Source of the DNA: Aphelocoma coerulescens
Taxonomy: Eukaryota > Chordata > Aves > Passeriformes > Corvidae
Length of the DNA stretch: 64,000 nt
Reading direction: 5' to 3'
NCBI RefSeq assembly: GCF_041296385.1
Contig: NW_027184085.1
Span: 56,945,109 to 57,009,108, forward strand
Numbering within the stretch: the stretch's first letter is position 1; every line of letters begins with the position of its first letter. Position numbers and translations under genes: made by a program. Below, in pieces: positions 18,993-21,230 of this stretch. The notes beneath the pieces were generated by a model. The model ran no database searches. It saw nothing but the letters and a program-made list of their open reading frames with translations, and was not told the DNA's origin.

Positions 18993-18998
18993 AAAACC
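18993..18998. repeat. Target-site duplication, left copy (AAAACC)
   Basis: AAAACC directly abuts the TGTT end of the left LTR and is repeated exactly at 21,225-21,230. A 6 bp duplication is the size produced by alpha- and betaretroviral-type integrases. Confidence 0.9.
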
Positions 18999-19270
18999 TG
19001 TTACAGTGGGGATACTGCAACACGCCTATATCAAACCAGGAGTCCCGTGGAAAAGAAATATATACGGACGGATTCTTGCTAGATGTTTCAGAGATGTTTA
19101 TTTCCCCAGCCGCATGGCCGGGCTCTGCTGAGGGACTCTTACAGTCGGGACCCGAGGGTCCTTGCCCGCGCAAGGGAACACAAACCAACCAATGGGGAAC
19201 GAGGCTGAGCAGGGGCAGGGAAACCCCGTGCCTCCCTCAGGGCTACATGGCGGGGGAGGAGACCCCAACA
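18999..19270 (-). repeat. 3' LTR of the provirus
   Basis: 272 bp, ending in inverted TGTT/AACA. It differs from the partner LTR at 20,952-21,224 by 13 substitutions and one 1-base indel (hand count, about 5%). On the minus strand it carries an AATAAA (19,102-19,097) and, on the other strand, a CCAAT (19,189-19,193). Ten of the 13 substitutions fall between about 19,111 and 19,172. Confidence 0.92.
19097..19102 (-). terminator. Polyadenylation signal AATAAA in 3' LTR
   Basis: AATAAA on the minus strand about two thirds of the way through the 3' LTR (and at 21,050-21,055 in the 5' LTR). This is where the provirus transcript would be expected to end in R. Confidence 0.55.
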
Positions 19271-19290
19271 TCTCACCCGTTTTATTTTAA
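19271..19290 (-). promoter_or_regulatory. Polypurine-tract-like sequence next to 3' LTR
   Basis: Reading toward the 3' LTR on the minus strand, the last bases before TGTT are A/G-dominated (aaaataaaacgggtgaga). Retroviruses prime plus-strand DNA from a purine tract in exactly this position. The tract is imperfect, with two pyrimidines, so it is decayed or weak. Confidence 0.5.
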
Positions 19291-19482
19291 TAAAAGGAGA
19301 TTGAAGACAACTGGATAACCATAACAAGAACAGTTTCAAAACAAAACAAGCCACCCTCCTGAGTCTTTAAATGTCCAAACAGATTCTGTGGAACATCTTA
19401 GGGCTGACAGAAGGGAGACAGAACTCTCTGGACATGCTTGTGGGGAAACTGAGGCAGGAGAGGGTTTCTTCCCTCCCCCTTT
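19291..19482 (-). other. 3' untranslated segment between captured frame and PPT
   Basis: About 190 bases with no frame and no retroviral homology that I recognise. It may be 3' UTR of the captured host mRNA or residual viral 3' sequence. There is no poly(A) run, which argues against a simple processed pseudogene having landed between two LTRs. Confidence 0.5.
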
Positions 19483-20313
19483 TCATCCCCCCATCGGCAT
19501 CGGAGAGGAATTGTAGGGAAATGGAACTGTATAAGGAAGCCATGGAGTGAAAAACGGATTAGGAATAAACTGGGGATAGGGTAAACTTAGGAAAGGGTTC
19601 ATATTGGGTATAGGGTAAAAGGGGAAATTAGGCTGTGGGTAGGGAAATTGCTGGAGTGGATATTGTTTATAATTTTGTGCATAACGGCTGCCTTTGACGG
19701 GAATACCTCCAGGCCCAGTAACATTCACTGCTTGTAAACCCTTCTTTCCTTGAACTATATCAAATTGAACAACTTCCCCATCTCCTACACTTTGCAGGTA
19801 ATTTTTAGGGTTATTCCTTTTAATGGCAGTTCTATGGATGAATAAATCTTCCCCTGTATCATCTCGTGTTATAAATCCATAGTTGTTTTTTACATTGTAC
19901 CATTTCACAGTTCCTGTGATTTTCGTTGCTAGAACGTCTCCTGTCACGTGCTTGCGTGTCTGTCGTGGGTGCCGGTCCCGCGTGGCCGCCGCCTCACTGA
20001 CTCCGACGTCTTGGCCAGGCCCCCGCATTGCGGCTGCTCTGTGCTCTCTGCACAACGCTGCTCCGGTGCGTGTCTGGGCTCTGCGCGGCCCCGCGCTGCC
20101 ATCGCCGCTGGCCCCACACCCCGTGAGCGGCTCCGCTCCGCAAACTCCACGCTGCTTCGAGAGCAGCCTCGTTTCGGCTCGGCGCTGCGCGGCTTCTCGT
20201 GTTGCTGTGGAAACCGCCGCTTCTCCCTGCATAGGGCTCTCTGAGCCGTATGCACAGAGCGGGCTTCCACGCTGACCTCCACTTCCTGGCTGCTCGTGGC
20301 CCACGGCATCCAT
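19483..20313 (-). CDS. Captured Y-box cold-shock-domain protein (276 aa) in provirus
   Basis: An uninterrupted 276-residue frame starting at an ATG in a strong Kozak setting (GGCGCC-ATG-G). Residues 1-126 are a basic, Ala/Arg-rich region of no known fold. Residues about 127-207 are a complete cold-shock domain of vertebrate Y-box type: GTVKW at 134-138, the RNP1-like NNYGFI at 143-148, the RNP2-like DLFIH at 156-160, and SVGDGE and NVTGPGG further on. The nucleic-acid-stacking residues W138, F147, F158 and H160 are all kept. By eye about seven in ten positions match the vertebrate YBX consensus; the AIKRNNP and PVKGSRYA blocks look closest to germ-cell YBX2/FRGY2. Residues 215-276 are a tail with 18 Pro, 8 Phe and 7 Tyr, unlike the basic/acidic repeats of host proteins. 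The frame is intronless, consistent with capture from spliced mRNA. Binding of single-stranded RNA or DNA is expected from the family; the role in the element is unknown. An internal start at M96 (181 aa) is possible. Confidence 0.85.
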   Translation of the reverse strand: MDAVGHEQPGSGGQRGSPLCAYGSESPMQGEAAVSTATREAAQRRAETRLLSKQRGVCGAEPLTGCGASGDGSAGPRRAQTRTGAALCREHRAAAMRGPGQDVGVSEAAATRDRHPRQTRKHVTGDVLATKITGTVKWYNVKNNYGFITRDDTGEDLFIHRTAIKRNNPKNYLQSVGDGEVVQFDIVQGKKGLQAVNVTGPGGIPVKGSRYAQNYKQYPLQQFPYPQPNFPFYPIPNMNPFLSLPYPQFIPNPFFTPWLPYTVPFPYNSSPMPMGG

Positions 20314-20500
20314 GGCGCCTGCGGCGTCGCTCCCTCACTCGCGGCCGGGTGGCCGGGGACCACGAGACAGGGATGGGGTCCGCGGTAAGGCGCGCACTCC
20401 TGAGGGGGCCAGGCACATCCAGCGCAGGCACCTCCGCTGGCACGGCTGCAGTCATACACTCCCGGGATGGCAGCCGCGCGGTCTCGGCCACGGGATAAGT
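19920..20500. other. CpG-island-like segment inside the provirus
   Basis: By hand count about 65 CpG dinucleotides in roughly 580 bases, in a window that is otherwise AT-rich and CpG-poor. It covers the region encoding residues 1-130 of the cold-shock protein and the sequence just upstream. The edges are sharp. The upstream edge near 20,480-20,520 probably marks the viral/host junction, because Y-box genes have GC-rich 5' UTRs and first exons. Such CpG density is unexpected in an old, methylated retroelement. Confidence 0.75.
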
Positions 20501-20815
20501 ATGATCTTCTGCTTTAGGGGTAATGGGACCATACAAATGCTCCTCAAGAGCTTCGCTGATTACAAAGGATCCACGGACAGCTTCTATCGCTCGTCCATCC
20601 CTTAGCTTATCACAGATCTCGTTCCAGAAACACTCCTGATAATATCCAGGAGGTCCGATATCAAAAAGTAAGTCTCGAGAAATACAGGGGAACCCTTTGA
20701 AAAGCCAGATAAAAAAGTGTTCAAGATCTCCCGGTTCCAATACTTTTTTGTTTTGTTGTTCAAGGATTCCTTTTACTTCTAGATACATTTTTTTCTGTGG
20801 CTCAGAGAGCCCCAT
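19994..20815 (-). CDS. Truncated gag: matrix-like N-terminus, then read-through into captured DNA
   Basis: The frame opens at an ATG followed by Gly (MGLS...), as expected of an N-myristoylated Gag. Residues about 5-95 have the helical and aromatic pattern of the beta-type retroviral matrix domain: a Leu-rich first helix, 'FFIWLFKGFP' at residues 34-43, and a downstream Trp-containing helix at 62-71. Matrix targets Gag to membranes. No capsid or nucleocapsid follows. From about residue 110 (near 20,490) the composition turns GC-rich and Arg/Ala-rich, and the frame continues 160 residues into the captured segment. There it is out of register with the cold-shock frame by +1, ending at a stop at 19,996-19,994. 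It could express a short Gag-like peptide or be a relic kept because leader and early gag usually contain packaging signals. Assignment to matrix rests on pattern recognition only. Confidence 0.6.
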   Translation of the reverse strand: MGLSEPQKKMYLEVKGILEQQNKKVLEPGDLEHFFIWLFKGFPCISRDLLFDIGPPGYYQECFWNEICDKLRDGRAIEAVRGSFVISEALEEHLYGPITPKAEDHTYPVAETARLPSRECMTAAVPAEVPALDVPGPLRSARLTADPIPVSWSPATRPRVRERRRRRHGCRGPRAARKWRSAWKPALCIRLREPYAGRSGGFHSNTRSRAAPSRNEAALEAAWSLRSGAAHGVWGQRRWQRGAAQSPDTHRSSVVQRAQSSRNAGAWPRRRSQ

Positions 20816-20899
20816 TTCCCACGATTCTTCCATAGTCCAGATATGGAATAGCAAAACAAAACCAAGAAGAGGAATCCAAAGTTTCCAGGGTTTACTCAC
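20816..20899 (-). other. In-frame hydrophobic extension upstream of gag, no early ATG
   Basis: Immediately after an in-frame TGA (20,902-20,900), 28 codons lead in frame into the gag ATG. They encode a hydrophobic stretch (KLWIPLLGFVLLFHIW) resembling a signal peptide or anchor. The only ATG in this extension is at 20,833, after the hydrophobic part, so translating it would require a non-AUG start such as the GTG at 20,899 or splicing. It may be chance, or an analogue of the glycosylated-Gag leader of gammaretroviruses. Confidence 0.35.
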
Positions 20900-20930
20900 T
20901 CAAAGTCGCTTAGGGATCGGGGATCGTTCT

Positions 20931-20948
20931 GCCCTTAATTCTCCACCA
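20931..20948 (-). promoter_or_regulatory. Primer-binding-site candidate
   Basis: Three bases downstream of the 5' LTR the minus strand reads TGGTGGAGAATTAAGGGC. The TGG start at this spacing is the standard complement of a tRNA CCA end. The first eight bases fit the complement of a tRNA-Ala 3' end (my recollection of tRNA sequences), but the remainder does not, so primer identity is unresolved or the site is decayed. Confidence 0.5.
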
Positions 20949-20951
20949 TTA

Positions 20952-21224
20952 TGTTGCAGTGGGGATACTGCAACACGCCTATATCCAACCAGGAGTCCCG
21001 TGGAAAAGAAATATATATGGACGGATTCTTGCTAGATGTTTCAGAGATGTTTATTTCCCCAGCCTCATCGCCAGGCTCTGCTGAGGGACTCTTACAGTCA
21101 GCACCCGAGCTGCTTTGCCCGCGCAGGGGAACACAAACCAACCAATGGGGAACGAGGCTGAGCAGGGGCAGGGAAACCCCGTGCCTCCCCTCAGGGCTAC
21201 ATGGCGGGGGAGGAGACCCCAACA
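20952..21224 (-). repeat. 5' LTR of the provirus
   Basis: 273 bp, TGTT...AACA, homologous along its whole length to 18,999-19,270. It holds a CCAAT (21,142-21,146 on the plus strand, inverted for the element), an AATAAA (21,055-21,050, minus strand) and an AT-rich TATATATATTT block near 21,010-21,018. Promoter and polyadenylation functions would be here. The exact U3/R/U5 borders cannot be set from sequence alone. Confidence 0.92.
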
Positions 21225-21230
21225 AAAACC
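21225..21230. repeat. Target-site duplication, right copy (AAAACC)
   Basis: Exact match to 18,993-18,998, directly abutting the right LTR end. Confidence 0.9.

What the first reader, a model, noticed from the sequence alone, without database searches (positions are those of the whole stretch)
18993..21230. A provirus that carries a host-derived Y-box cold-shock gene instead of pol and env
Seen directly: paired 272/273 bp LTRs with TGTT/AACA ends, exact AAAACC duplications, a gag-like start, and between the LTRs an intronless, unbroken 276-codon frame with a complete Y-box cold-shock domain. Known: defective transducing retroviruses have the form LTR, leader, partial gag, host cDNA, LTR, and their captured genes are mostly growth regulators. 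Inferred: an avian retrovirus picked up an mRNA-masking, RNA-binding protein gene and the product was endogenised. I know of no described element of this kind. Cellular Y-box proteins are reported to bind retroviral RNA and aid its stability or packaging, so a captured copy could act on the element's own RNA or favour germ-line expression.
Basis: partly seen in the sequence, partly recalled or inferred. Interest (0 to 1): 0.92.

Follow-up and report, generated by a model that had tools for sequence, protein, structure and literature searches.

The report
Jumping element carrying a cold-shock gene
A small virus-like jumping element, present in many copies in this genome, carries a borrowed cellular RNA-binding "cold-shock" gene whose protein sequence has been kept by selection, which suggests that the element uses the borrowed protein for itself.

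Summary
The sequence observation holds: a 2,226-bp minus-strand element (18999-21224) with 273/272-bp LTRs, exact 6-bp target duplications and an intronless Y-box cold-shock domain (CSD). The larger finding lies outside the window: it is a many-copy, recently active family. All 24 of 24 two-LTR copies sampled through the LTR carry the CSD at the same place; they are too short for pol and env. Two lineages share LTRs, leader and 3' region (94-96% identical), but their CSDs are about 76% identical, with dS near 1 and dN/dS 0.21-0.25: purifying selection on a domain most likely captured once, and exchange of the LTR backbone around it. In 112 of 150 scored copies the CSD lies in an open frame of at least 440 codons, usually fused to an N-terminal gag-position domain. 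The window copy is of the kind in which that frame is split, so its 276-codon start is not the family norm. Most likely mechanism (inferred): a helper-dependent retroelement whose only protein binds its own RNA. The gag-position domain matches no database family; helper and donor gene were not found. Host-gene capture by ERVs is known; this cargo, fused and kept by selection, was not seen in print in ten searches.

The parts
21225..21230 (.). 6-bp target site duplication at the 5' end of the element (GGTTTT on the minus strand)
20952..21224 (-). 5' LTR, 273 bp
20931..20948 (-). primer binding site, first 11 bases fit tRNA-Ala(AGC)
   Evidence: tRNA-Ala genes in the own genome; 2 of 49 sister copies fit 18 of 18 bases
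20504..20833 (-). N-terminal domain in gag position, 110 codons from ATG; homologous in both lineages, no database match
19936..20503 (-). GC-rich linker; Arg-rich in the coding frame, but also in the other frames
19672..19935 (-). Y-box cold-shock domain
19486..19671 (-). Phe/Tyr/Pro-rich tail, shared by both lineages
19271..19482 (-). 3' non-coding region; its last 30 bases (19271-19300), in the place of a polypurine tract, are identical in 13 of 15 copies
18999..19270 (-). 3' LTR, 272 bp
18993..18998 (.). 6-bp target site duplication at the 3' end of the element

Best explanation
This is one copy of a many-copy, non-autonomous LTR retroelement family that most likely once captured the cold-shock domain of a Y-box gene and has kept it under purifying selection through at least two long-separated lineages. 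In most scored copies the domain is part of one long frame: a gag-position N-terminal domain, a linker, the CSD and a Phe/Tyr/Pro-rich tail. No pol or env is present, so reverse transcriptase and integrase must come from a helper; cDNA synthesis is primed by tRNA-Ala. The mechanism I think most likely, by inference, is that the fusion protein coats and stabilises the element's own RNA and brings it to the helper's particles, as Gag nucleocapsid does, and as cellular YB-1 is reported to support several retroviruses. Shown: family, recent insertions, primer site, selection on the CSD, exchange of LTR backbones, long frame. Strongly indicated: a single capture. Inferred: RNA binding, packaging role, helper.
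For: Family: LTR 3,427 first-look candidates, 40 of 40 scored at 95-100%; 24 of 24 LTR-sampled two-LTR copies carry the CSD; 150 of 150 scored CSDs without stop. Recent: LTR-pair K2P median 0.015 in 49 copies, 6 without differences; exact 6-bp duplication in 36 of 40 with full LTR matches. Selection: CSD dS 0.92-1.05, dN/dS 0.21-0.25 in four pairs between lineages, 0.18-0.22 for 16 of 16 B copies against the window; 12 of 12 old A copies keep 94-97% CSD identity with LTRs of 77-88%. Long frame: 112 of 150 at least 440 codons, 63 exactly 467 (values); the N-terminal domain reports frames of the same length at matching places. Single capture: 11 shared derived residues of 17 columns changed in both, about 8 jointly changed expected; N-terminal domains (33%, E 2e-13) and tails (49%, E 2e-10) homologous between lineages. 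Backbone exchange. Primer. YB-1 and retroviral RNA: PMC6040738, passages.
Against: The N-terminal domain matches no Gag profile and has weak constraint (pN/pS 0.78 in 36 copies). In the window copy and 23 other A copies the CSD is in phase +1 to the N-terminal domain, and some of these are recent insertions. In lineage A distinct lengths do not favour one phase (5, 6 and 2). The linker's Arg content and charge are as high in the other reading frames, so they are no evidence of function. Intact frames in a recent burst need no selection. No helper was identified, RNA binding was not tested, and the host's own YBX genes were not retrieved.
Confidence: 0.6

Rival explanations
1. Passenger: a defective transducing retroelement whose captured gene does nothing for it. 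LTRs, leader and 3' end suffice for mobilisation by a helper and the gene is carried along.
For: Flanks are conserved and exchanged between lineages; split-frame copies have also inserted recently; non-coding elements of this kind are known (recalled).
Against: dN/dS 0.21-0.25 over dS near 1 with no stop in the CSD of 15 of 15 copies and in 150 of 150 scored (a best-scoring list); no CSD-less two-LTR copy among 24.
Confidence: 0.2
2. Host use: the host, not the element, profits from the CSD protein (for instance germ-line mRNA control or restriction of retroviruses), and selection acts on one or a few host-used copies from which the others derive.
For: Purifying selection on a host-derived domain; Chong et al. 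leave the same question open for CrocERV29 (PMC4299795, section 15).
Against: Recent copies are many and dispersed, and two lineages are constrained separately; no single conserved locus was seen, but other species could not be searched.
Confidence: 0.12
3. Two separate captures of different Y-box genes into the same LTR backbone.
For: The two CSDs (59 of 88 residues identical) are no closer to each other than lineage A is to YBX2 (63 of 88).
Against: 11 shared derived residues of 17 jointly changed columns; N-terminal domains and tails, which are not from Y-box genes, are homologous.
Confidence: 0.05
4. Secondary insertion of a Y-box retrocopy into one provirus in the window.
For: None found.
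Against: 24 of 24 LTR-sampled two-LTR copies carry the CSD at the same place.
Confidence: 0.01

Closest known systems
CrocERV31 with nectin3 and CrocERV29 with KIT-ligand, crocodilian ERVs (PMC4299795; abstract, outline, sections 10 and 15 seen)
   Same: Multi-copy ERV lineages with a captured host mRNA under purifying selection.
   Different: There the cargo is a surface protein or growth factor, in place of env or between pol and env; here an RNA-binding domain is fused behind a gag-position domain in an element with no room for pol and env.
Acutely transforming retroviruses with partial gag and a host gene (recalled; RSV src mentioned in PMC4299795 section 15)
   Same: LTR, leader, N-terminal viral part, host-derived intronless coding part, LTR; helper needed in most.
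   Different: Those are single recent events with growth regulators; this is a many-copy family with two old lineages and a constrained RNA-binding domain. The N-terminal part is not shown to be Gag.
Non-autonomous LTR retroelements mobilised by a relative (for example ETn/MusD; recalled)
   Same: Short, no pol, paired LTRs, target duplications, recent insertions.
   Different: Codes for one conserved long protein with a host-derived domain.
Y-box proteins YBX1/YBX2/YBX3
   Same: CSD: 63 of 88 residues as in YBX2, 59 of 88 as in YBX1.
   Different: No basic/acidic repeat C-terminus; Phe/Tyr/Pro-rich tail, element-specific N-terminal domain, 22 of 80 columns changed where YBX1 and YBX2 agree.

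Membership tests
Non-autonomous LTR retroelement (ERV-like) | paired LTRs with target site duplication | tested here: met
   window; exact 6-bp duplication in 36 of 40 copies with full LTR matches, 38 of 49 in all
Non-autonomous LTR retroelement (ERV-like) | no polymerase genes | tested here: met
   49 two-LTR copies are 1,627-2,288 bp long; their interior is accounted for by leader, N-terminal domain, linker, CSD, tail and 3' region
Non-autonomous LTR retroelement (ERV-like) | a helper with matching ends | tested here: inconclusive
   integrase domains abundant (150 of 150 scored over cut-off, 3,106 first-look candidates), flanks could not be fetched
Defective transducing retrovirus | intronless host-derived coding sequence between LTRs | tested here: met
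   the host gene itself was not retrieved, its introns are recalled
Defective transducing retrovirus | residual gag sequence | tested here: inconclusive
   no Pfam or PDB match, poor fold
Class II ERV (alpha/beta-like) | 6-bp target duplication | tested here: met
   the link of 6 bp with class II is recalled
Class II ERV (alpha/beta-like) | class II reverse transcriptase | not testable with these tools
   no pol in the copies seen
Y-box protein family | Y-box type cold-shock domain | tested here: met
Y-box protein family | basic/acidic repeat C-terminal region | tested here: not met
   tail of 62 residues is 55% Phe/Tyr/Trp/Pro, net charge +1; a Y-box-derived domain, not a full Y-box protein

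The most novel reading that the evidence does not exclude
A retroelement lineage has rebuilt its Gag: in place of capsid and nucleocapsid it uses a host cold-shock domain behind a matrix-position domain, giving a self-encoded RNA coat protein with which a 2.2-kb element without polymerase competes for a helper's particles. The LTR backbone is exchanged between lineages like a vector, the N-terminal domain diversifies, and the CSD is held fixed.
Probability: 0.35. Interest if true: 0.93.

Novelty: new variant of a known kind. Interest (0 to 1): 0.82.

Why it matters
Captured host genes in retroviruses are mostly growth regulators or surface proteins (recalled, and PMC4299795). Here the captured function is RNA binding, and it is kept by selection in two lineages of an element that lacks a polymerase. 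If the reading is right, it makes testable how non-autonomous retroelements secure their mobilisation, and whether a parasite of retroviruses can carry its own packaging protein. It also raises the question, not tested here, whether some 'Y-box-like' gene models in related genomes are transposon genes.

Tried and rejected
Rejected: secondary insertion of a Y-box retrocopy into one provirus. Rejected: bacterial or phage origin (the 2 IMG/VR relatives are 44-48% identical over 62-68 residues; Y-box proteins score far better). Rejected: the 276-codon frame as the family's usual protein. Disfavoured: two captures. Dropped as evidence: the Arg-rich linker, because the other two frames are equally Arg-rich.

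Led nowhere: the N-terminal piece in IMG/VR (12 pattern matches, 0 relatives), Pfam and PDB, single-sequence fold (no fold search was made on so poor a model). Rfam on the window: 0 families. Five other long frames of the window against Pfam: nothing over cut-off. Host YBX exons: the 89-residue YBX2 query listed only element copies in its 150 scored matches; a 34-residue query did not complete. Only the window's own genome was searched for copies; no other bird genome was available. In print: ten searches of the open-licence PMC library listed, in titles and abstract starts of the 3-20 best papers each (1), no ERV with a Y-box or cold-shock cargo. Seen beyond listings: PMC4299795 (abstract, outline, sections 10 and 15), and passages of PMC6523648, PMC7825780 and PMC6040738. 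Repeat libraries, subscription journals and preprint servers were not searched.
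Full report
What is in the window. The LTRs differ at 13 sites and 1 gap column, K2P 0.049. An open 276-codon frame (20313-19483) holds a complete Y-box cold-shock domain, CSD. The stretch in gag position (ATG at 20833) has no Pfam match at E up to 10, no credible PDB match and a poor single-sequence fold; 'gag-like' remains a statement of position.

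It is a family. The window's own genome (1.33 Gb, 660 contigs, unnamed) gave 3,427 first-look candidates for the LTR; 40 were scored and 40 of 40 are 95-100% identical over the whole LTR. I fetched the surroundings of all 39 non-window matches in 31 stretches: 24 are two-LTR elements, 6 are solo LTRs, and 1 has an LTR with only 44 bases of the adjoining interior. 24 of 24 two-LTR elements carry the CSD at the same place. This sample was taken by LTR, not by the gene, but only from the best-scoring LTRs. A search with the CSD of YBX2 had 1,652 first-look candidates; 150 were scored, and 150 of 150 are full-length CSDs of 72-74% identity without a stop. The gag-position piece had 1,706 candidates; 150 of 150 scored match over 108-109 residues, 4 with a stop. 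The candidate numbers are unscored and give only an order of magnitude; the scored lists are the best matches, not random samples.

It has moved recently. In 49 two-LTR copies (window not counted) LTR-pair K2P is 0-0.066, median 0.015; 6 have no difference, 2 of these with partial LTR matches. Exact 6-bp duplications flank 36 of the 40 with full LTR matches and 38 of all 49. The site after the 5' LTR fits tRNA-Ala(AGC): a pattern for its 3' end matched 11 places in the genome, control 0, and the fetched places are tRNA-Ala(AGC) genes. 2 of 49 copies fit 18 of 18 bases; the mean alignment score is 12.5 against 5.3 for 200 shuffled sites, largest 10.1. The window copy fits the first 11 bases. 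The 30 bases before the 3' LTR are identical in 13 of 15 copies.

Two lineages. Of 53 fetched non-window copies with a CSD, 37 are lineage A (as the window) and 16 lineage B. Mean identity between lineages is 0.765 for the CSD, but 0.942 for the 3' LTR, 0.937 for the leader and 0.959 for the 3' region; within A the values are 0.969, 0.925, 0.945 and 0.954, within B 0.989, 0.974, 0.968 and 0.968. On trees the A/B label changes once for the CSD, but 9 times each for the 3' LTR and the 3' region (no shuffled control was run). Along single copies, A against B is near identical at both ends, 38-61% in the N-terminal domain and linker, and 69-76% in the CSD. So coding parts of old divergence sit in a shared LTR backbone, as recombination between co-packaged RNAs would produce (inference). 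Relative to YBX1 and YBX2, both lineages share 11 derived residues among 17 columns changed in both, where 8.0 jointly changed columns are expected for independent change (hypergeometric 5e-6). The N-terminal domains (33% over 102 residues, E 2e-13) and tails (49%, E 2e-10) are homologous between single copies of the two lineages. One capture is therefore much likelier than two, though the host's YBX genes are missing from the comparison.

Selection. Between lineages the CSD has dS 0.92-1.05, dN 0.205-0.226 and dN/dS 0.21-0.25 in four pairs of single copies, and no stop in 15 of 15 copies examined. Against the window all 16 B copies give 0.18-0.22. Within lineage A pooled pN/pS is 0.30 for the CSD (37 copies, 2 stops), 0.36 for the tail (37 copies, 7 stops, all 7 in alignments with a 15-base gap and not examined further) and 0.78 for the N-terminal domain (36 copies, 6 stops). 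In 12 older A copies the N-terminal ratio against the window is above 1 (1.15-2.03) in 6 and 0.43-0.60 in the other 6; no test of diversification was made. In the same kind of old copies, 12 with LTRs 77-88% identical to the window's (one 41-base partial LTR match left out), the CSD is still 94-97% identical. The synonymous distance between lineages is too large to date by the LTR clock: the lineages are very old, or gathered changes at reverse-transcription rates (inference).

Frame architecture. In 112 of the 150 scored CSD matches the open frame is at least 440 codons, in 63 exactly 467 (values); the N-terminal domain reports frames of the same length at matching places, for example C1:52694939 and C1:52695737. 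The usual arrangement is thus one frame from the N-terminal domain through linker and CSD to the tail. Of 16 fetched B copies 13 have both ends in phase and 11 are fully open; 8 of 11 distinct lengths are multiples of three (P 0.009 if lengths were independent, which descent makes doubtful). Of 37 A copies including the window (one more had no N-terminal match), 10 are in phase, 8 fully open; 24 including the window are in phase +1 and 3 in phase +2, and the distinct lengths do not favour one phase (5, 6 and 2). That A sample is biased towards window-like copies, since 29 copies came from a search with the window's own frame. Some split copies are recent insertions. Whether they make a separate CSD protein is open. 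The linker of 19 fully open copies has 165-202 residues, 17% Arg, net charge +19 to +20 and no CX2CX4HX4C knuckle, but the other two reading frames are about as Arg-rich, so this composition proves nothing.

How it most likely works. Without pol, movement needs a helper. Retroviral-type integrase domains are plentiful in this genome (3,106 first-look candidates, 150 of 150 scored over the Pfam cut-off), but their flanks could not be fetched, so the helper is unnamed. The RNA made from the LTR would be translated into the fusion protein, which would bind RNA by its CSD and join helper particles by its N-terminal domain. YB-1 is reported to support MLV, MMTV and HIV in an RNA-dependent manner (PMC6040738, passages seen). 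Constraint on the CSD is shown; its use is inferred.

Compared with the known. The nearest printed cases seen are CrocERV29 with KIT-ligand and CrocERV31 with nectin3 (PMC4299795, sections 15 and 10). Ten searches listed no ERV with a Y-box or cold-shock cargo (best-ranked titles and abstract starts only). I rate it a new variant of a known kind, host-gene capture by retroelements, with unusual cargo, fusion and persistence.

Noticed in passing
own genome C35:8431668, 8433602, 8435536: Three CSD matches at a constant spacing of 1,934 bases on one strand: probably a tandem array of elements sharing LTRs, as unequal recombination would make.
   Followed up: no
own genome C14:3.41-3.72 Mb, C3:63.1-63.6 Mb, C658: Repeated integrase matches with recurring spacings (for example about 14.4 kb on C14 and 12.5 kb on C3): clustered or tandemly amplified retroviruses with open frames.
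   Followed up: no
window 20504-20833 against older lineage-A copies: N-terminal domain: dN/dS above 1 (1.15-2.03) in 6 of 12 older copies, 0.43-0.60 in the other 6; possible diversification, not tested.
   Followed up: partly
3' LTRs of 51 copies: 40 of 51 LTRs hold ATTGGTTGG, an inverted CCAAT motif, the core after which Y-box proteins were named (recalled); the full CTGATTGG is in 0 of 51. A possible link between cargo and promoter, no chance control made.
   Followed up: partly
window 38126, 48371, 61985 and 6713, 18281: Dispersed repeat families that look like avian CR1 elements (recalled, not tested).
   Followed up: no
window 14391-14432: An uninterrupted run of 42 A, perhaps the end of a retroposed insert.
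   Followed up: no
window LTRs: The window's LTR is closer to LTRs of several lineage-B copies (96-97%) than to those of some lineage-A copies (93-94%), although its coding part is lineage A.
   Followed up: partly
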